NCBI GenBank assembly: GCA_017882505.1
Contig: JADGPJ010000025.1
Coordinates: 1-33,506, forward strand
Origin: Solirubrobacterales bacterium
GTDB lineage: Bacteria > Actinomycetota > Thermoleophilia > Solirubrobacterales > 70-9
Length of the DNA stretch: 33,506 nt
Direction of reading: 5' to 3'
Numbering within the stretch: position 1 is the stretch's first letter; every line of letters begins with the position of its first letter. The translations under genes were made by a program, and so were the position numbers. Below, in pieces: positions 2 to 19,201 of this stretch. Below the pieces are notes generated by a model, which was not told where the DNA came from, ran no database searches, and was given only the letters and a program-made list of their open reading frames with translations.

Positions 2-766
2 TTAGGCGTCGGCCCGGAGCTTGGCGGAAAGAGCGGCGAACTCCGCGGGAGAAAGGGCCTCGGCCCGGGCGTCTTCGGGCAGCCCGAGCTCGGACAGCGC
101 CGCCCGCACCGGCGCCAGCGAGCCTTTGCGCCCGTGCTCGAGCGAGCGCGCCAGGGACTTGCGGCGGTGGGCGAAGGCGGCGCGGATCAGCGCCCGCGTC
201 GCCTCGTCCCCGCCGGGGCCGGTGCGGCGCAGCCGCAGGATCGCCGAGTCGACCCGGGGTCGCGGCCGGAAGACCGCGGGGTCGACCTTGCGGACCAGCT
301 CGACCTTGCAGGCGAGCTGGGCGACGACGCTCGGCGAACCGTAGGTGCGGCTGCCGGGCGCCGCCCGCAAGCGGTCGGCGATCTCGCGCTGGACCATCAC
401 CGTCCAGCTCGCCAGCGAGGGCAGCTTCTCGATCGTGCGCAGGATCAGCGGCGTCGCCACCGAGTAGGGCAGGTTGGCGACCATCGCCGTCGGTGCCGGC
501 TCGAAGGCGTCGAGATCGAGCTTCATCGCGTCGCCCCAGTGCAGGCTGACGTTGGGGAGCGCCGCGACCTCGGCCAGCGCCGGCTCCAGCCCGCGGTCGA
601 TCTCGACCGTGTGCAGGTGCGCCGCGACGGCGGCGAGCCGCTCGCTCAGGACCCCCTCCCCCGCCCCGACCTCGAGCACGACGTCGGCGGGCGAGAGCTC
701 GGCGTCGCGGACGATCGCGTCGAGCAGGTTGGGGTCGGCGAGGAAGTTCTGGCCGAGCCTGACCAA
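2..766 (-). CDS. rsmA: 16S rRNA dimethyladenosine transferase RsmA (KsgA)
   Basis: SAM-dependent methyltransferase that dimethylates two adjacent adenines in the 3'-terminal hairpin of 16S rRNA, a late step in 30S assembly. Seen in the 254-residue product: the opening GQNFL motif at residues 5-9, the SAM-binding motif VLEVGAGEG near residue 30, and the catalytic NLPY motif near residue 99. An Arg/Lys-rich C-terminal helical part follows. The start is TTG at 766, preceded by a G-rich stretch just after the tatD stop and only 9 bases from it, so the two genes are probably co-transcribed. The protein starts very close to the GQNFL motif, so the N-terminal tail is short for the family. The stop codon sits at the very edge of the window and the gene is complete. 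Confidence 0.95.
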   Translation of the reverse strand: MVRLGQNFLADPNLLDAIVRDAELSPADVVLEVGAGEGVLSERLAAVAAHLHTVEIDRGLEPALAEVAALPNVSLHWGDAMKLDLDAFEPAPTAMVANLPYSVATPLILRTIEKLPSLASWTVMVQREIADRLRAAPGSRTYGSPSVVAQLACKVELVRKVDPAVFRPRPRVDSAILRLRRTGPGGDEATRALIRAAFAHRRKSLARSLEHGRKGSLAPVRAALSELGLPEDARAEALSPAEFAALSAKLRADA

Positions 767-775
767 GACCGCCCC

Positions 776-1543
776 CTACCAGCCGAAGAGCGCGCGGGCG
801 TTGGCCTCGACCGTGCGCTCCAGCTGCTCGTAGGTGACGCCGCGCTCCGCGGCGACGACGGCGGCCGTCTCGACCACGTTGGCCGGCTCGTTGCGCTTGC
901 CGCGCATCGCCTGCGGCGAGAGGTACGGCGCGTCGGTCTCGACCAGGATGCGGTCCTCCGGGACCTTGGCGGCGGCGAAGCGGAGGTCCTTCGCGCTCGG
1001 GTAGGTGACGTTGCCGGCGAACGAGCAGTACCAGCCCCGCTCGGCCGCGTCGGCGACCCGCCGCGGCGCCGAGAAGCAGTGCAGGATCACGGTCTGGCCG
1101 GCCGCCCTGGCGTCGAGCGTGGCGAAGATCTCGTCGATCGCGGTGCTCTCGCCCTCGGAGTCGCGGGCGTGGATCACGATCGGCAGGTCGAGCTCCAGGG
1201 CGACCTCGATCTGGGCGGCGAAAGCGCGCCGCTGGTCGTCCGGGGAGGCGGTGTCGCGGTAGTAGTCGAGCCCGGTCTCGCCGATCGCCCGCACCTTCTC
1301 GTGGCCGCCGAGGCGAACGAGCTCGGCGGCGGCCGCGTCGTCGAACCCGGTCGCATCGTTGGGGTGGCGGCCGACCGTCGCGAAGACCGACGCGTTGCGC
1401 TCGGCGCCGGCGATCGCCCCTGCGTTCGTCTCCCCGTCGAGGCCGATGTTCAGCATCCGCCGCACCCCGGCCTCGGCCGCCGCCGCGATCAATTCGGCCT
1501 CCGGCTTCTCGCAGAGAAAGAGGTGGGTGTGGGAGTCGATCAT
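776..1543 (-). CDS. tatD: TatD family metal-dependent hydrolase (DNase)
   Basis: TIM-barrel amidohydrolase of the TatD/YcfH family, whose members act as metal-dependent 3'-5' exonucleases in DNA repair or RNA quality control. The 255-residue product shows the metal-binding DSHTHL at residues 3-8, GETGLDYYRD in the middle, HARD, HCFS and the C-terminal ETDAPYL followed by RGKRNEP. Full length for the family. It lies directly upstream of rsmA, 9 bases away, a common bacterial pairing. Upstream, a TAGGCT hexamer (1555-1560, minus strand) lies 11 bases before the ATG. It overlaps the -10 element of the divergent FMN enzyme. Confidence 0.93.
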   Translation of the reverse strand: MIDSHTHLFLCEKPEAELIAAAAEAGVRRMLNIGLDGETNAGAIAGAERNASVFATVGRHPNDATGFDDAAAAELVRLGGHEKVRAIGETGLDYYRDTASPDDQRRAFAAQIEVALELDLPIVIHARDSEGESTAIDEIFATLDARAAGQTVILHCFSAPRRVADAAERGWYCSFAGNVTYPSAKDLRFAAAKVPEDRILVETDAPYLSPQAMRGKRNEPANVVETAAVVAAERGVTYEQLERTVEANARALFGW

Positions 1544-1554
1544 CGGCGCCGCTC

Positions 1555-1564
1555 AGCCTATCCT
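1555..1564. promoter_or_regulatory. Overlapping divergent -10 elements (tatD / FMN enzyme)
   Basis: The plus strand reads TATCCT at 1559-1564, six bases before the ATG at 1571, so transcription would start at or next to the start codon. The minus strand reads TAGGCT at 1560-1555, 11 bases before the tatD ATG. The two hexamers share the TA at 1559-1560, so polymerase cannot occupy both at once. The intergenic gap is only 27 bases. Called from hexamer match and spacing alone; no clear -35 was seen on either side. Confidence 0.45.
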
Positions 1565-1570
1565 TGCCCG

Positions 1571-2731
1571 ATGGCGGACTTCGCCGACTACTACCGCGAG
1601 ATCTACCTGCGCGGGCTCGGCGGGGAGACGCCGTCGATCCCGGTCTCGATCGCCGAGCTCGAGCGCCGCGCCGTCGAGGCGATGGAGCCCCGGGCGGCCA
1701 ACTACGTCGGCGCCGGCGCCGGCAGCGAGGAGACGATGCGCGCCAACACCGAGGCCTTCCGGCGGCGGCGGATCGTGCCGCGGATGCTGCGCGACGTCTC
1801 CGAGCGTGACCTCGCGACGACCGTGCTGGGGACGGCGATGACGGCACCGCTGATGCTGGCGCCTATCGGCGTCCAGAGGATTCTGCACGAGGACGGGGAG
1901 TTGGCCAGCGCCCGCGCTGCGGCGGCGCTCGGCACGCCGATGATCGCCAGCACCGCCTCGCACTTCACGCTGGAGGAGATCGCCGCGGCCGGCGGCGACG
2001 CTCCGCGCTGGTTCCAGCTCTACTGGGCCAACGACCGCGACCTGGTCGAGAGCTTCGTCGGCCGCGCCGAGCGCGCTGACTACGGCGCGATCGTCGTCAC
2101 CGTCGACACCTTCATTCCCGGCTGGAAGCCGCGCGATCTGCAGCAGGCCTGGCTGCCGTTCCTCAACGGAATGGGCGTCGCCAACTACTTCGAGGACCCG
2201 GTCTTCCGCGCCGGGCTCGAGGAGACGCCGGAGGAGAACCAGGGCGCCGCCACCGGCCACTTCCTCAGCATCCAGGCCAACCCCTCGCTGAACTGGGGCG
2301 ACCTCGCGGAGCTGCGCGAGATGACCTCGTTGCCGATCCTGCTGAAGGGGATCCAGCACGTCGAGGACGCCCGCGAGGCGGCCCGGAGGGGAATCGACGG
2401 CGTCGTCGTCTCCAATCACGGCGGCCGCCAGGTCGACGGCGCCCTCGCCTCTCTCGACGCGCTGCCGGAGATCGCCGCGGCGGTCGGCGACGAGCTCGCG
2501 GTGCTGCTCGACAGCGGCGTCCGCGGCGGCGCCGACGTGTTGAAGGCGCTCGCGCTCGGCGCCGACGCGGTCTGCCTCGGCCGCCCCTACATCTGGGGCC
2601 TGGCGCTGGAGGGTCAGGGCGGGGTCGAAACGGTGCTGAAGATGGTCCTCGCCGAGCTCGACCTGACGATGGCGCTCTGCGGCCTCACCAAGCCCGACCA
2701 GCTCGGCGCCGACTGCCTCGCCGCCGAATGA
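1571..2731 (+). CDS. FMN-dependent alpha-hydroxy acid oxidase (lactate 2-monooxygenase-like)
   Basis: Member of the FMN-dependent alpha-hydroxy acid dehydrogenase family (TIM barrel), which oxidises L-2-hydroxy acids such as lactate. In the 386-residue product, LMLAPIG near residue 95, the lysine in ILLKGIQH (K259), the catalytic histidine motif SNHGGRQVDG (281-290) and a following DSGVRGG with GRPYIWGLA phosphate-binding end are all present. The long insert around residues 188-225 (PFLNGMGVANYF) resembles lactate 2-monooxygenases more than glycolate or mandelate enzymes. The exact substrate is inferred. The reading frame stays open for about 1.4 kb upstream, but the real start is ATG 1571, because homology begins there and a TATCCT element sits six bases before it. 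It converges with metG. Confidence 0.88.
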   Translation: MADFADYYREIYLRGLGGETPSIPVSIAELERRAVEAMEPRAANYVGAGAGSEETMRANTEAFRRRRIVPRMLRDVSERDLATTVLGTAMTAPLMLAPIGVQRILHEDGELASARAAAALGTPMIASTASHFTLEEIAAAGGDAPRWFQLYWANDRDLVESFVGRAERADYGAIVVTVDTFIPGWKPRDLQQAWLPFLNGMGVANYFEDPVFRAGLEETPEENQGAATGHFLSIQANPSLNWGDLAELREMTSLPILLKGIQHVEDAREAARRGIDGVVVSNHGGRQVDGALASLDALPEIAAAVGDELAVLLDSGVRGGADVLKALALGADAVCLGRPYIWGLALEGQGGVETVLKMVLAELDLTMALCGLTKPDQLGADCLAAE

Positions 2732-12557: not shown

Positions 12558-14057
12558 ATGGATCTGAACCTCGCATCGATCGTCACCGAGAGCGCCGGTC
12601 GGGTTCCCGACGCCACCGCGGTGCGGCTGAACGACGCCGAGCTGACGTACGCGGAGCTCGACGAGTGCAGCGCCCGCCTGGCGACGTTGCTCGTGGAGCG
12701 CGGGCTGGGGCCCGGCGACCGGGTCGGGGTGATGCTGCCCAACGTCCCCGAGTTCCCGATCGCCTACTACGGGGTGCTGCGCGCCGGCGGGATCGTGGTG
12801 CCGATGAACGTGCTGCTGAAGCGGCGCGAGATCGCCTTCCACCTCGGCGACTCGGGAGCGCGGACGCTGCTTGCCTGGCACGGCTTCGCCGCCGAGGCGC
12901 GCGATGGCGCCGAGGACGCCGGCGCCGAGCTGATCGAGGTCGAGCCGGCCGCCTTCGCCGAGGCGCTCGCCGCGCACGAGCCCGCCGCCGGCGTCGCCGA
13001 AAGCGACGAGCAGGACACCGCGGTGATCCTCTACACCTCGGGCACGACCGGCAAACCGAAGGGAGCCGAGCTGACCCACCTCAACCTCTCCCGCAACGCG
13101 GACATCGCCTCGCGAACTACCTGCGAGGTGAACGAGGGGGACGTCATCCTCGGCGCCCTGCCGCTCTTCCACTCCTTCGGGCAGACGGTCAGCATGAACG
13201 CCTCGCTGCGGGTCGGTGCGACGCTGACGCTGCTGCCCCGCTTCGACCCGGGCGAAGCGCTGGCGACGATGCAGCGCGACGGCGTCACCCACTTCTACGG
13301 GGTGCCGACTATGTACGGGGCGCTGCTGCACCACCCCGGCCGCGAGGACTTCGACACCTCGGCGCTGCGAACCTGCATCACCGGCGGCGCCTCGATGCCG
13401 GTCGAGGTGCTGCGCGGCTTCGAACAAGCCTTCGGCTGCATCGTGCTCGAGGGCTACGGCCTCTCGGAGACCTCCCCCGTCGCCAGCTCCACCCACCCCG
13501 GCCGCGAGCGCAAGCCGGGTTCGATCGGCACCCCGATCGAAGAAGTCGAGATGCGGGTCGTCGACGGGGACGACAGCGAGGTCGCCCGGGGTGAGGTCGG
13601 CGAGATCGTGATCCGCGGCCACAACGTCATGAAGGGGTACTGGCAGCGCCCCGACGCCACCGCGGAGGCGATGCGCGGCGGTTGGTTCCACAGCGGCGAC
13701 ATGGCCCGCGTCGACGAGGACGGCTGCTTCTTCATCGTCGACCGCAAGAAGGACCTGATCATCCGCGGCGGCTACAACGTCTACCCGCGCGAAGTCGAGG
13801 AGATCCTCTACGAGCACCCGAAGATCCGCGAAGCGGCGGTGCTCGGCGTCCCCCACGACGAGTGGGGCGAGGAGATCGGCGCCGCCGTCGTCCTCCACGA
13901 GGGCGAGGAGCTGAGCGCGGAGGAGATCAGCGCCTACGTCAAGGACCGCATCGCCGCCTACAAGTACCCGCGCCTGGTCTGGTTCCTCGACGAGCTCCCC
14001 AAAGGCCCGACCGGCAAGATCCTCAAGCGCGAGATCGAGACTCCGGCAGCGGCCTGA
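12558..14057 (+). CDS. fadD: Long-chain acyl-CoA synthetase (AMP-forming)
   Basis: ANL-superfamily adenylating enzyme of 499 residues, activating a carboxylic (probably fatty) acid to its CoA thioester. Motifs in order: the AMP-binding P-loop TSGTTGKPKG at about 160-169, GYGLSETSPV near 302, and GWFHSGDMARVDEDG with DRKKDLIIRGGYNVYP before the hinge. Last comes the C-terminal lysine motif GPTGKILKREI near the end. The set fits medium/long-chain fatty acyl-CoA ligases; chain length cannot be read from sequence. A strong hairpin follows its stop. Its neighbour downstream is a lipid-binding R2lox-SCP2 protein, so a lipid role is plausible. Confidence 0.9.
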   Translation: MDLNLASIVTESAGRVPDATAVRLNDAELTYAELDECSARLATLLVERGLGPGDRVGVMLPNVPEFPIAYYGVLRAGGIVVPMNVLLKRREIAFHLGDSGARTLLAWHGFAAEARDGAEDAGAELIEVEPAAFAEALAAHEPAAGVAESDEQDTAVILYTSGTTGKPKGAELTHLNLSRNADIASRTTCEVNEGDVILGALPLFHSFGQTVSMNASLRVGATLTLLPRFDPGEALATMQRDGVTHFYGVPTMYGALLHHPGREDFDTSALRTCITGGASMPVEVLRGFEQAFGCIVLEGYGLSETSPVASSTHPGRERKPGSIGTPIEEVEMRVVDGDDSEVARGEVGEIVIRGHNVMKGYWQRPDATAEAMRGGWFHSGDMARVDEDGCFFIVDRKKDLIIRGGYNVYPREVEEILYEHPKIREAAVLGVPHDEWGEEIGAAVVLHEGEELSAEEISAYVKDRIAAYKYPRLVWFLDELPKGPTGKILKREIETPAAA

Positions 14058-14345: not shown

Positions 14346-14375
14346 CTGGCCAGGCAGCCAGGATCACGCTAGTCT
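14346..14375 (+). promoter_or_regulatory. R2lox-SCP2 promoter with palindromic operator candidate
   Basis: The inverted repeat CTGGC-N6-GCCAG (14346-14361) occupies the -35 region, and TAGTCT (14370-14375) is a good -10. The leader of about 30 bases ends in AAAGGAG, a strong ribosome binding site seven bases from ATG 14412. The overlap of the palindrome with the -35 position suggests repressor or activator control; the protein is unknown. Confidence 0.4.
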
Positions 14376-14411
14376 CCCCGTGCCGGCTATGCAACACCAA
14401 AAGGAGCAGAG

Positions 14412-15698
14412 ATGAGCGTCGCCTCCCAGAGCTTGATGGACAACGTCACCTACGAGGATCTCTACCGCCGCTGGGAGGGCGGGAACTGGAGCGCCTACGA
14501 CATCGACTTCAGCCAGGACCGCGCCGGCTGGGAGGCGTTGAGCGACATCCAGCGGCGCTCGGCGATGTGGATCTACTCGATGTTCTTCTACGGCGAGGAC
14601 CGGGTCGCCGACACCCTCGCCCCCTACATCACCGCCGCGCCGACCGAGGAGCAGGCCTACTTCCTCGCCACCCAGCAGGTCGACGAGGTCCGCCACTCGA
14701 TCTTCTTCCACCGCTTCTTCAAGGAGGTGATCGGGGTCGGCGGCGAGACGCTGCAGCAGACCCTGGCCTCCACCCTCCCCCAGCTCAACTGGGGCTACCG
14801 CGGCATCTTCGACCGCCTCGACCTGATGGCCGAGGAACTGCGCAAGGACCGCTCGCTGCCCAAGTACGCGCAGGCGATCACGCTCTACCACCTGATCGTC
14901 GAGGGCAGCCTCGCCCAGCCCGGCCAGCACTTCATCGAGGACTTCTTCGCCTCCGAGGAGACGATGCCGGGCTTCAGCTCCGGGATGACCAACGTCTCCC
15001 GTGACGAGCAGCGCCACATCGGCTTCGGCGTCAAGGTCCTCTCCGAGCTGCTCGGCGAGGGGAACCCCGGCTGGGAGGAGAACCGGGCAGCGGTGGTCGA
15101 GCTGTTGCGCGAAACCCTCCCCTACGGCCCCGCGGTCTTCTCGCCGCCCAACCTCGATCGCTCCTACACCGAGTGCTACGGCTTCAGCCTCGAGGACATC
15201 TTCGCCTTCGGCCTCAAACTGATCCGCCAGCGCTGGCGGACGATCGGCTTCCCGACCGAGGAGATGCCCCCCGGGGTCTTCCCCTTCGACCCGGAGATGT
15301 CCGAGGACGAGGTCGCCGAGCGCCAGGTCAAGTTGATGATGGCCGGGATCCTCGGCCCCCCCGACGGGCCCAAGCCCGACTCCTCGCCGGAGACGCAGCG
15401 CCTCTACTTCGACCTGATCAGCCGCGCCGCCGACCCGAAGGCCGCAAACGGCTCGCCGCTGGTCTACCAGTGGCGGTTCAGCGACGCCGATCCCTGGCAC
15501 CTGACGATCGACAACGGCTCGACCCGGGCCGAACCGGGCGAGGCGACCAGCCCCAACCTCGTCATCGAGTCGAGCTGGTCCGACTGGGTCGCCTCCGGCA
15601 AACCGGATGCCAACCAGCTGAAGATGGTCCTGCAGCGCCGCATCCGCCCGCGCGGCAACCTGCGCGAGCTGGCGCGGATGCGCAAGGTCTTCCGCTGA
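14412..15698 (+). CDS. R2-like ligand-binding oxidase (R2lox) fused to SCP2 sterol-carrier domain
   Basis: 428 residues with a ferritin-like di-metal oxidase domain (about 1-300) and a C-terminal SCP2 lipid-binding domain (about 345-428). Metal ligands of the ribonucleotide-reductase R2 fold are complete: E62, E92xxH95, E164 and E199xxH202. The two residues that form the Val-Tyr ether crosslink in R2lox lie at the same offsets here: V65 (three after E62) and Y159 (five before E164). This argues for R2lox rather than a true RNR beta subunit, although such proteins are often named RNR beta. R2lox is known to use a Mn/Fe centre and hold a long-chain fatty acid ligand. The tail shows SCP2-like WHLTIDNGS, SDWVASGKPD and MVLQRRIRPRGNL. 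A cytosolic lipid oxidase is inferred; the substrate is unknown. ATG 14412 has AAAGGAG upstream. Confidence 0.82.
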   Translation: MSVASQSLMDNVTYEDLYRRWEGGNWSAYDIDFSQDRAGWEALSDIQRRSAMWIYSMFFYGEDRVADTLAPYITAAPTEEQAYFLATQQVDEVRHSIFFHRFFKEVIGVGGETLQQTLASTLPQLNWGYRGIFDRLDLMAEELRKDRSLPKYAQAITLYHLIVEGSLAQPGQHFIEDFFASEETMPGFSSGMTNVSRDEQRHIGFGVKVLSELLGEGNPGWEENRAAVVELLRETLPYGPAVFSPPNLDRSYTECYGFSLEDIFAFGLKLIRQRWRTIGFPTEEMPPGVFPFDPEMSEDEVAERQVKLMMAGILGPPDGPKPDSSPETQRLYFDLISRAADPKAANGSPLVYQWRFSDADPWHLTIDNGSTRAEPGEATSPNLVIESSWSDWVASGKPDANQLKMVLQRRIRPRGNLRELARMRKVFR

Positions 15699-15789
15699 GC
15701 GGGGCCTGTGAGGGAGGGGTCCTCCAGCAAACGCACCCCACCAGCTTCTAGATAAGCGGGACGGGACGGGGCGTCTCTCGCCAGGGCTT

Positions 15790-15819
15790 GGGGGAGCGGC
15801 TCCGCTCTCGCACACCCCC
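15790..15819. terminator. Hairpin between R2lox-SCP2 and amidase genes
   Basis: GAGCGG (15794-15799) pairs with CCGCTC (15802-15807), and flanking GGGG (15790-15793) can pair with the C run at 15815-15819 with an asymmetric loop. It lies between the convergent R2lox-SCP2 and amidase genes and may serve either strand. The rest of the 124-base gap holds G/C-rich low-complexity sequence and no gene. Confidence 0.45.
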
Positions 15820-17260: not shown

Positions 17261-19201
17261 CTATGTGTCGTCGAGCCCTCTTGCCACCACTCCACCCAGC
17301 CCTTCGGCGAGGACGATCACCCGATCGTCCTCCGCGAGGGTCACCCGCTCGGACTTCGCCGGGTTGATGCGGACGCCGAAGCGGCTGCCGGGATCCTCTG
17401 ACCTCGCGCTGGACCGAAAACCGATCGCGCACTCGCCGCGTCGGCGCGCGGCCTCGACCACGGTCGCGTAAGAGACCTCGCGGCCCGGGTGCACGTAGTC
17501 GCTCGCCGGCCGCAGGTAGAGCTCGCTGCCGCCGGCCGAGAAGAGCTCGCCGAAGACTTGCGAGAGCTCGCGGTTCTCGGAGATCTGGGTCAGCATCAGG
17601 CTGATGATCTTGTCGCTGACGATCACGTCGTCGACCCTGGTCACCTCCGCCAGCTGGCGATTGCGATCGTCGATCATCTCGCTGACGATCGTGAACTCGG
17701 CCCGGCGCCGTTCGGCGATGTCGCGCAGCTGCAGCAGGGTGACGAGGGTCCGCGCATCGGCCCGCTGCGCGTCGAGACCGTCGGCCGAGAGCACGATCAC
17801 GTGGTCGACGTGCTCGAGCCCGATCGCCTCCAGGACCTCCCGATCCGTCGGGCTGTCCTCGCGCAGCTCTGCGGTCGCGTTGTGGGGGCTCGCGCGCCGC
17901 AGTTCGATGCACCGTTTTGCCTCCTGCTCGTCGCTGACCACAAGCAGGTCAGAGCCGGCGAGCAGGAACTGGTCGAACTCGCGGATGACGCCGGCGGCGC
18001 CCTGATTCCAGCCGAGGATCAGGATGCTCTCCGGCTGCCGGGCGGACGTCGGGGCGGTGGAGATCGCCGTGGCGTCGACCTCCCCCATGCTCTGCTCCGC
18101 CGCCACCAGGTGGGCGTCGTCGGCAGCGATCGCGACGATCCGCTCGCCGGCTTCGATCGGGCTCTCGGCGGAGGGGTTCAGGCGCACCGTTCCCTCGCCG
18201 TCGACCAGCCCGATCGGCGAGCAGTCCTCGTAGGCGAGCAGGGCGTCAGCGAAGGGCCGCCCGGTGAGGCTCTCGTCCTGGCGGAAGTAGATCTCGTCGC
18301 CTTTGAAATCGAGCAGCTCGATGAAGGCGACCGAGGCTCCCGACTGGCGGGCGCTGTGGACGACGAGCTTGGCGATCGTCTCGCGCTTGTCGATCAGCAC
18401 CACCTCCTTGCCGCCGACGAGGCGGGCGGCGCCGAGGTTGCGCGGCTCCTGGATCTCGGCGACGACGTGGTACGGGTGTTTGCTGTGATCCTCCCCCTTG
18501 GTCAGGGCGAGGATCGTCTTGATCACCTGGGCGTCGGGTTCCTCGTCGGCTTCTGGCGAGAGGACGACGATCGAGCGCGCCCGCTCGGCCCGCACCAGGG
18601 CCAGGTGACCGAGGTCGATCGGCGAGCCGCTGCGGGTCACGATCCGGGTCCGCTTCGGCCGCACCTTCTCGCGGATCAGATCGTCCATCTCGACCTTGTC
18701 GCGGTCCGCGAGAACGACCGCCGAGGGCTTGCGCTGGCTCTCGTTGGCGATCTCGAGCTCGGAGAGCACGGTGAAGATCGTGTCCGACCAGCCGAGGATC
18801 AGCGTGTGGTCTTCCTCGAGCACCATCGAGCGCCCCTTGCGCATCTCTTCGATCCGCGAGTTGAGTCCGGTGGCGAGGACACCGATCAGGGCGCTGACGA
18901 CGAAGAGGCCGCCGAGGGTGACCAGCAACATCACCGCGAGAAAGGGCCAGTGGCCTTCGTCTTCGGCGATCGTGCCGGGGTCGAGAGCGTGCAACAGGCT
19001 TTCGAACGCCTGGCCGACGACGCCGTGGTGAGCGCCGGCGCTGTTCGGGGCGAAGTTTCCGATCAGGACGATCGCGGTGAAGAGCGCGATCAGCGCCAGC
19101 GTCGCCAGCGCCAGCCAGCCGACCAGGGCCGGCGTGCCCCGCGCCATCGTGTTGTCGAAGGCGTAGCGAACGCGCTGGTGCAGGGTCGGGCGTGCCGGCA
19201 T
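17261..19201 (-). CDS. CASTOR/POLLUX-like ion channel with RCK domains
   Basis: 646-residue membrane protein resembling CASTOR/POLLUX/SYM8 channels (plant homologues are nuclear-envelope cation channels; bacterial ones are poorly studied). Seen: a basic N-terminus, TM1 at about 24-48, a pore-loop-like stretch with ALDPGTI at 72-78, TM2 at about 87-111. A large cytosolic part follows with two RCK-like Rossmann repeats beginning HTLILGWSD (132-140) and ESILILGWNQG (about residue 395). Such domains gate channels in response to Ca2+ or nucleotides. The pore loop lacks a TVGYG potassium filter, so selectivity is unknown. ATG 19201 lies eight bases after TATCCT, suggesting leaderless transcription. 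The amidase starts 10 bases after its stop. Confidence 0.85.
   Translation of the reverse strand: MPARPTLHQRVRYAFDNTMARGTPALVGWLALATLALIALFTAIVLIGNFAPNSAGAHHGVVGQAFESLLHALDPGTIAEDEGHWPFLAVMLLVTLGGLFVVSALIGVLATGLNSRIEEMRKGRSMVLEEDHTLILGWSDTIFTVLSELEIANESQRKPSAVVLADRDKVEMDDLIREKVRPKRTRIVTRSGSPIDLGHLALVRAERARSIVVLSPEADEEPDAQVIKTILALTKGEDHSKHPYHVVAEIQEPRNLGAARLVGGKEVVLIDKRETIAKLVVHSARQSGASVAFIELLDFKGDEIYFRQDESLTGRPFADALLAYEDCSPIGLVDGEGTVRLNPSAESPIEAGERIVAIAADDAHLVAAEQSMGEVDATAISTAPTSARQPESILILGWNQGAAGVIREFDQFLLAGSDLLVVSDEQEAKRCIELRRASPHNATAELREDSPTDREVLEAIGLEHVDHVIVLSADGLDAQRADARTLVTLLQLRDIAERRRAEFTIVSEMIDDRNRQLAEVTRVDDVIVSDKIISLMLTQISENRELSQVFGELFSAGGSELYLRPASDYVHPGREVSYATVVEAARRRGECAIGFRSSARSEDPGSRFGVRINPAKSERVTLAEDDRVIVLAEGLGGVVARGLDDT

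What the first reader, a model, noticed from the sequence alone, without database searches (positions are those of the whole stretch)
14412..15698. R2lox-type oxidase fused to an SCP2 lipid-binding domain
Seen: the di-metal ligands E62, E92, H95, E164, E199 and H202 are all present. V65 and Y159 fall exactly where R2lox proteins carry the Val-Tyr ether crosslink (+3 from the first Glu, -5 from the third Glu). A C-terminal ~85-residue segment resembles SCP2. From memory, characterised R2lox proteins of Mycobacterium and Geobacillus are about 300 residues with a buried fatty acid ligand and no SCP2 domain. Inference: the SCP2 domain could deliver or receive the lipid. The acyl-CoA ligase upstream fits a lipid substrate. 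Automatic annotation as ribonucleotide reductase beta is probably wrong, since no alpha subunit is nearby.
Basis: partly seen in the sequence, partly recalled or inferred. Interest (0 to 1): 0.78.

Follow-up and report, generated by a model that had tools for sequence, protein, structure and literature searches.

The report
Metal oxidase fused to lipid-binding domain
This bacterial genome encodes a protein that joins a metal-containing, oxygen-using enzyme core to a lipid-binding domain in one chain, which suggests an enzyme that carries its own fatty substrate and gives a direct way to ask what this poorly understood enzyme group oxidises.

Summary
Window 14412-15698 (+) encodes 428 residues: an R2lox-superfamily di-metal oxidase core with all six ligands and the Val65/Tyr159 pair, then a domain with the SCP2 fold. 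It is not a ribonucleotide reductase subunit: the only R1-like gene found in the genome is a B12-dependent class II enzyme.

It is not a canonical R2lox: it has Arg94/His160/Gln172 where 12 of 12 canonical rows have Lys/Asn/Tyr and forms a separate lineage. The fusion is old: by my count 61 of 299 sampled genomes of the class carry it full length, all in one order; it recurs elsewhere in the phylum.

Lipid context comes from relatives only. Canonical R2lox on some Rhodococcus plasmids clusters with a separate SCP2 gene and an acyl-CoA ligase. In a distant family the fused gene lies beside acyl-CoA dehydrogenase genes in 10 of 12 genomes with a match, but in none of 36 loci of the window's order. 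There, five copies lost the site-1 Glu and cross-link Tyr together. The ligase upstream of this copy is a local neighbour. Substrate and cross-link are untested. A new variant of a known kind.

The parts
14402..14406 (+). ribosome-binding site AGGAG, 5 bases before the ATG
   Evidence: read directly
14412..15698 (+). whole gene: R2lox-like oxidase fused to SCP2, 428 aa plus stop
14412..15266 (+). R2lox-superfamily helical core (residues 1-285)
14595..14597 (+). E62, metal site 1 ligand (E69 of Geobacillus R2lox)
14604..14606 (+). V65, position of the cross-linking Val (V72 of Geobacillus)
14685..14696 (+). E92 and H95, bridging and site 1 ligands; R94 between them replaces the R2lox Lys
14886..14891 (+). 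Y159, position of the cross-linking Tyr (Y162 of Geobacillus), and H160 (Asn in canonical R2lox)
14901..14903 (+). E164, metal site 2 ligand
14913..14927 (+). A168, the small residue that opens the ligand tunnel in R2lox (A171), to Q172, which replaces the cavity Tyr175
15006..15017 (+). E199, R201 and H202: bridging ligand, R2lox-type Arg and site 2 ligand
15267..15386 (+). linker, residues 286-325, with a helix predicted at 298-310
15387..15695 (+). SCP2-like domain (residues 326-428)
12558..14057 (+). long-chain acyl-CoA ligase (NF004837, 486.5 bits, cut-off 476), upstream neighbour; local association only

Best explanation
A two-domain lipid oxidase. The R2lox-like core binds a Mn/Fe or Fe/Fe pair with E62, E92, H95, E164, E199 and H202, activates O2 and, as in characterised R2lox proteins, links V65 to Y159. 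It then performs two-electron oxidation (hydroxylation or desaturation) of an acyl or alkyl chain that enters the tunnel kept open by A168. The fused SCP2 domain binds the hydrophobic substrate or product and hands it to, or takes it from, the core. Electrons come from a ferredoxin and reductase encoded elsewhere. Shown here: predicted fold, ligands, cross-link positions, SCP2 fold, age and conservation of the fusion, and lipid-type gene context in some relatives. Inferred: metals, cross-link, substrate, reaction, direction of lipid transfer and electron donor.
For: Ligands and V65/Y159 invariant in A1 and present in 45 of 45 intact fused rows, 44 of them distinct. Foldseek of the full model (pLDDT 89.4, pTM 0.88) gives R2lox entries as the first 34 matches, before RNR R2. 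The tail is SCP2 by profile and by fold, including human MFE-2 SCP-2L and the C-terminal parts of alkylsulfatases. One fused clade (37 rows, 99/90; 15 rows, 83/96). Canonical R2lox in R. opacus lies in a cluster with NDMA-dependent alcohol dehydrogenase, FAD oxidoreductase, ferredoxin, aldehyde dehydrogenase, a separate SCP2 protein and fatty acid-CoA ligase, with a related arrangement in R. oxybenzonivorans and a weak SCP2 match beside R2lox on Mycobacterium plasmids. The fused gene lies beside acyl-CoA dehydrogenases in 10 of 12 f13 genomes with a match. Literature, passages only: fatty acid in the R2lox tunnel and A171 opening it (PMC6399176, PMC4118035); alkane loss with crude GkR2loxI lysate (PMC10867098).
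Against: The cavity Tyr (Y175), proposed to take part in substrate oxidation, is Gln in this lineage, so the chemistry may differ. In the window's own order no acyl-CoA dehydrogenase like those of f13 lies in the 36 fused loci examined (35 distinct), and three second copies in f13 lack them too (L126-L128). No ferredoxin, reductase or acyl-CoA dehydrogenase like those of the relatives was found in the window. The acyl-CoA ligase neighbour is not conserved. In 13 of 13 other genomes with an R2lox-like gene no SCP2 match lay near that gene, apart from one fused copy (draft contigs). The separate Rhodococcus SCP2 is not recognisably close to the tail by BLAST or by the tail profile. Two papers caution on substrate: the co-purified fatty acid may be an expression artefact (PMC4118035 passage), and octadecanoic acid and fatty aldehydes are argued not to be substrates of the R2lox tested (PMC10867098 passage). 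The alkane activity rests on crude lysate.
Confidence: 0.45

Rival explanations
1. It is the beta subunit of a class I ribonucleotide reductase, as a Pfam-only annotation would say.
For: Pfam Ribonuc_red_sm matches over its cut-off (55.1 bits).
Against: The only R1-like gene found in this genome is a B12-dependent class II enzyme (NF005122, 1378 bits, cut-off 859). RNR beta models score at most 23.7 bits. E. coli NrdB, NrdF and a NrdF of the phylum have Leu-Asp at the G61-E62 site and no Val at 65; the query groups with R2lox against them (96/96).
Confidence: 0.01
2. The core is a lipid oxidase, but the SCP2 tail is only a dimerisation, membrane-docking or regulatory part and does not deliver the substrate.
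For: Two paralogues in the same genome and many relatives have no tail. The tail evolves faster than the core (dN higher in SCP2 in 6 of 6 comparisons).
Against: SCP2 genes are separate neighbours of R2lox in some Rhodococcus plasmids. The tail is kept even where the metal site is partly lost (3 of 3 such copies scanned).
Confidence: 0.25
3. It oxidises a non-acyl hydrophobic compound (isoprenoid, quinone, polyketide or other natural product) or oxidises nitrogen, as other R2-like oxygenases do.
For: Unfused relatives L099 and L102 lie in natural-product-like regions of Streptomyces plasmids, and L102 keeps both Val and Tyr. Q172 replaces the cavity Tyr. The tail fold also resembles UbiJ, an SCP2 protein of quinone synthesis.
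Against: L099 and its sister in the tree L078 have lost the Val and Tyr of the cross-link, while intact fused rows keep both in 45 of 45. Acyl-CoA dehydrogenase context in f13.
Confidence: 0.25

Closest known systems
R2-like ligand-binding oxidase (R2lox: M. tuberculosis Rv0233, G. kaustophilus GkR2loxI, S. acidocaldarius SaR2loxI/II)
   Same: Fold, six metal ligands with Glu at the first site, Gly before it, Val and Tyr at the cross-link positions, Ala at the tunnel, Arg before the last His
   Different: R94 for Lys, H160 for Asn, Q172 for the cavity Tyr; SCP2 tail; scores below NCBIfam R2lox cut-offs
Rhodococcus opacus plasmid R2lox cluster
   Same: R2lox and SCP2 linked with a fatty acid-CoA ligase
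   Different: SCP2 is a separate 135-aa protein not close in sequence to the tail; the R2lox is canonical and has ferredoxin, reductase and dehydrogenase genes beside it
SdsA1 and Pisa1 alkylsulfatases with an SCP2-like C-terminal part (matches; its role in binding alkyl chains is recalled)
   Same: Catalytic domain followed by an SCP2-like tail; SdsA1 is the best Foldseek match of the tail
   Different: Unrelated catalytic domain (zinc hydrolase, recalled)
SCP2 domains of eukaryotic MFE-2 and SCPx (1ikt and others)
   Same: SCP2 domain of a fatty-acid enzyme
   Different: Fused to dehydrogenase/hydratase or thiolase (recalled), not to a di-metal oxidase

Membership tests
R2lox | Six carboxylate and His ligands, first one Glu rather than Asp | tested here: met
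   E62, E92, H95, E164, E199, H202 invariant in A1; NrdB and NrdF have Asp at the first
R2lox | Val and Tyr at the cross-link positions | tested here: met
   V65 and Y159 in 45 of 45 intact fused rows, 44 distinct; the residues only, not the bond
R2lox | Val-Tyr ether bond formed | not testable with these tools
   needs mass spectrometry or a structure
R2lox | Gly, Pro, Ala and Arg of the six R2lox-unique residues listed in PMC3824934 | tested here: met
   G61, P71, A168, R201; my mapping by offset from the ligands
R2lox | Lys and cavity Tyr of the same six | tested here: not met
   R94 and Q172 in 45 of 45 intact fused rows; Lys and Tyr in 12 of 12 canonical rows. The paper notes rare exceptions
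R2lox | Score above NCBIfam R2lox cut-offs | tested here: not met
   124.6 bits against 194 for the best of five models; the Rhodococcus and Geobacillus R2lox used as controls pass
R2lox | Groups with R2lox away from RNR R2 in a tree | tested here: met
   96/96 with three RNR rows as outgroup
R2lox | Inside the canonical R2lox clade | tested here: not met
   separate lineage: 59 rows, 99/92; 30 rows, 91/99, with the branching among R2lox groups weak at 81/57
R2lox | Mn/Fe cofactor and bound fatty acid | not testable with these tools
   needs purified protein
SCP2 domain | Pfam SCP2 match | tested here: met
   25 of 27 rows at E<=0.01; the query alone is under the cut-off as a protein (19.3 against 21.3) and over it in the genome search (22.7)
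SCP2 domain | SCP2 fold | tested here: met
   Foldseek of the predicted tail: alkylsulfatases from 5.4e-7, SCP2 chains from 1.2e-6
SCP2 domain | Lipid binding | not testable with these tools
   needs a binding assay
Class I RNR beta subunit | Class I alpha partner in the genome | tested here: not met
   only class II NrdJ found in a genome rated 93% complete
Class I RNR beta subunit | RNR-type residues around the site | tested here: not met
   differs from NrdB and two NrdF at 61, 62, 65 and 201

The most novel reading that the evidence does not exclude
A second R2lox subfamily, defined by Arg94/His160/Gln172 and a permanently attached SCP2 lipid carrier, forms a self-loading lipid oxygenase across Solirubrobacterales and another part of the phylum, where it serves acyl-CoA metabolism. 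In the latter, a version that has lost metal site 1 and the cross-link Tyr together, but kept site 2 and the lipid domain, works as a mononuclear enzyme or as a lipid-binding partner of an intact copy.
Probability: 0.25. Interest if true: 0.8.

Novelty: new variant of a known kind. Interest (0 to 1): 0.6.

Why it matters
A 2019 paper says the physiological function of R2lox has not been identified (PMC6399176 passage); a 2024 paper reports alkane loss with crude lysate (PMC10867098 passages). A covalently attached lipid-carrier domain, a separate-gene counterpart in some Rhodococcus clusters, and acyl-CoA dehydrogenase neighbours in one family narrow the question to acyl or alkyl lipids and give a protein in which the carrier domain may retain the natural lipid on purification. 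The joint loss of the site-1 Glu and the cross-link Tyr in one clade is a natural test of the reported tie between the cross-link and site-1 metal choice.

Tried and rejected
RNR beta subunit: rejected. Acyl-CoA ligase as a conserved partner: rejected as a general rule (10 of 12 near loci, 1 of 14 farther ones). Antisense ORF of 483 aa (14364-15815 -): set aside as a by-product of composition, because the + frame encodes the conserved protein; its own conservation was not tested. A second copy in L025: judged a likely assembly artefact, since it repeats the first copy almost letter for letter from about residue 163. Similarity search of the window for ACAD, ferredoxin and reductase of the relatives: none found.

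Rows dropped: the residue table leaves out 6 of 97 rows (L025 second copy, L071 and L086 truncated, L089 and L090 very distant, L096 second hit); L027 and L038 are the same gene, so 45 intact fused rows are 44 distinct; three further fused rows of a second type (L070, L072, L074) also have V65, Y159, R94 and Q172. The first tree used 74 of 97 rows. The second used 42 of 97 plus three RNR rows. Counts of 34 of 50 and 61 of 299 full-length fusions are mine from the listings (one match from residue 12 or earlier to 416 or later). Of six Rhodococcus plasmid records I opened four (H9, H10, H12, H20); H13 and H21 were not opened.

Papers: PMC6060897, PMC6399176, PMC4118035, PMC10867098 and PMC3824934: passages only; others only in search listings. 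Two further papers were not held. No paper in the library held both 'R2lox' and 'sterol' or both 'ligand-binding oxidase' and 'sterol'; R2lox occurred in none of the 20 of 416 papers listed or the 10 of 32 listed. That is not proof that the fusion is unreported.

Full report
WHAT IS THERE. Window 14412-15698 (+) encodes 428 residues behind a good ribosome-binding site. Residues 15-234 match Pfam Ribonuc_red_sm, and residues 341-427 match SCP2 weakly. NCBIfam ranks five R2lox models first (best 124.6 bits, cut-off 194), with RNR beta models at 23.7 bits or less. Against solved structures the best matches are R2lox chains: 7qbk at 1.2e-21, 6qrz at 3.8e-20, GkR2loxI 4hr0 at 4.6e-19.

THE TAIL. 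25 of 27 rows of that alignment match PF02036 at E<=0.01, best 3.7e-9. A profile of the tails finds human MFE-2 SCP-2L at 5.2e-6, alkylsulfatases and SCP2 itself. The predicted tail (pLDDT 92.3) matches alkylsulfatase SdsA1 (5.4e-7) and SCP2 chains such as 1ikt (1.8e-6). The full-length model has pLDDT 89.4 and pTM 0.88, and its first 34 Foldseek matches are R2lox entries. The PF02036 search found one match in the whole genome, this one.

NOT A REDUCTASE SUBUNIT. The genome search finds three R2-like genes: this one and two without a tail (39% and 33% identical). Its one R1-like gene is a vitamin B12-dependent class II enzyme, 1378 bits against a cut-off of 859, a class that needs no R2 subunit (established knowledge). 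The genome is rated 93% complete, so a missed gene is possible but unlikely.

RELATION TO R2LOX. Published R2lox-unique residues (PMC3824934 passages) map to G61, P71, A168 and R201 (met) and to R94 and Q172 (not met: Lys and Tyr expected). In my residue table (91 of 97 rows) canonical R2lox rows have Lys, Asn and Tyr at 94, 160 and 172 in 12 of 12; intact fused rows have Arg in 45 of 45, His in 44 of 45 and Gln in 45 of 45 (44 distinct rows). V65 and Y159 are kept in both sets. E. coli NrdB and NrdF and a NrdF of the phylum lack the R2lox residues at 61, 62, 65 and 201. With these three as outgroup, the query's lineage and R2lox stand together (96/96), and the query's lineage is a branch of its own (91/99); how the R2lox groups branch is weakly supported (81/57). 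In the larger unrooted tree the lineage is 59 rows at 99/92, and the fused rows form one clade of 37 at 99/90, in the smaller tree 15 at 83/96, which suggests one fusion event. The lost Tyr is the one that hydrogen-bonds the water on metal 1 and lines the cavity in GkR2loxI (PMC6060897 and PMC4118035 passages), so the chemistry may differ. The kept Ala is the one that opens the ligand tunnel (PMC6399176 and PMC4118035 passages).

DISTRIBUTION. In the window's family 43 of 50 genomes have some match; by my count 34 of 50 show one match spanning core and tail, six more show pieces of the gene and three show only tail-less relatives. In the class 97 of 299 have a match; by my count 61 of 299 span core and tail, all in the same order. 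In the phylum 44 of 396 have a match, with full-length fused copies in two more families, f13 and f18, outside the class, and a fused piece at a contig end in f49 (L086). No plasmid record held a match over 80% or more of the query (34 records matched). The 27 named loci are metagenome assemblies, most titled Solirubrobacterales, Thermoleophilia or Actinomycetota and some only 'bacterium'.

GENE CONTEXT. The upstream acyl-CoA ligase is found in 10 of 12 loci nearest in sequence (L004-L015; one of the ten only 53% identical) but in 1 of 14 others (L016-L029). The glycyl-tRNA synthetase gene lies upstream in 10 of those 14, so this neighbourhood is mainly conserved gene order. Two other contexts are informative. 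First, canonical R2lox genes on two Rhodococcus opacus plasmids lie with NDMA-dependent alcohol dehydrogenase, FAD oxidoreductase, ferredoxin, aldehyde dehydrogenase, a separate SCP2 protein (PF02036 1.4e-7 in the one scanned) and fatty acid-CoA ligase. R. oxybenzonivorans has the same genes with two regulators between. Two Mycobacterium plasmids share a 136-aa protein with a sub-threshold SCP2 match next to R2lox, and a ligase. Rhodococcus sp. 008 has no SCP2 annotated in the stretch seen, and the Geobacillus and a Streptomyces plasmid have no SCP2 match. In 13 of 13 other genomes searched no SCP2 match lies near the R2lox-like gene, apart from the fused copy of G454. So the link is real but limited to some clusters, and the plasmid records are not independent of each other. 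The separate SCP2 and the tail are not recognisably close by BLAST or by the tail profile. Second, in family f13 (16 genomes searched, 12 with a match) the fused gene has at least one closely similar acyl-CoA dehydrogenase gene beside it in 10 of those 12, and one on each side in 7 (some loci end before the second). Second copies elsewhere in three of these genomes have none (L126-L128), and none is seen in 36 fused loci (35 distinct) of the window's own order.

A PARTLY DISARMED VERSION. At that same place five genomes (G395, G513, G531, G464, G444) carry a copy that has lost E62 (Val or Ile, 5 of 5) and Y159 (Cys or Thr, 5 of 5) and, in 3 of 5, H95. The other ligands, E92, E164, E199 and H202, are kept in 5 of 5. 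Three of these five were scanned with Pfam and all three keep the SCP2 domain. Four genomes have the intact version at that place, and G395 and G444 have an intact copy elsewhere. The frames are open over some 420 residues and the other four are 60-64% identical to the G395 copy, so these look like retained genes. Joint loss of a site-1 ligand and the cross-link Tyr fits the reported effect of cross-link mutations on site-1 metal choice (PMC6399176 abstract passage).

MECHANISM. Shown: predicted fold, ligands, cross-link positions, tunnel Ala, SCP2 fold, one old fusion, lipid-type neighbours in some relatives. Inferred from R2lox literature: Mn/Fe or Fe/Fe assembly, O2 activation, Val-Tyr bond. 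Inferred from anatomy: the SCP2 domain binds an acyl or alkyl lipid and exchanges it with the core, which hydroxylates or desaturates it, with electrons from a ferredoxin system encoded elsewhere. Against: two papers caution that the co-purified fatty acid may be an artefact and that octadecanoic acid and fatty aldehydes are not substrates of the R2lox tested (passages). I put the whole chain at about 0.45. That the protein is an R2lox-superfamily core fused to an SCP2 fold is near certain.

NOVELTY. In the held library no paper holds both R2lox and sterol, or ligand-binding oxidase and sterol. This does not cover subscription journals or architecture databases. I rate it a new variant of a known kind.

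Noticed in passing
L114-L118 (also L053, L055, L056), genomes G395, G513, G531, G464, G444: Fused R2-SCP2 copies that lost the site-1 Glu and cross-link Tyr together but keep the site 2 and bridging ligands and, in the three scanned, the SCP2 tail, beside acyl-CoA dehydrogenase genes.
   Followed up: partly
L070, L072, L074, L086: A second, more distant type of R2-SCP2 fusion with Lys or Arg at position 173 and clear Pfam SCP2 tails (3.2e-14 to 5e-9) in families f18, f13 and f49.
   Followed up: partly
L101 3753-10867 and L113: Canonical R2lox in an apparent oxidation gene cluster (alcohol and aldehyde dehydrogenases, ferredoxin, reductase, SCP2, acyl-CoA ligase) on Rhodococcus opacus plasmids.
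   Followed up: partly
L099 5929-6918 and L078: R2lox-like proteins that lack the Val and Tyr of the cross-link; L099 lies in a natural-product-like region of a Streptomyces plasmid, while L102 in another such region keeps both.
   Followed up: no
L002 (G000:C37) and L003 (G000:C110): Two tail-less R2lox-like paralogues in the window's own genome; L003 has Ile at the cross-link Val position.
   Followed up: partly
window 17261-19201 (-): A 646-aa protein matching Castor/Pollux ion-channel and RCK/TrkA-N domains in Pfam, with no NCBIfam match at E<=0.01.
   Followed up: no
window 134-2731 (+): 865-aa frame whose FMN-dependent dehydrogenase domain begins only at residue 515; the true start is probably downstream.
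   Followed up: no
L025 6795-8219 (-): An apparent second fused copy that repeats the first almost letter for letter from about residue 163; likely an assembly artefact.
   Followed up: partly
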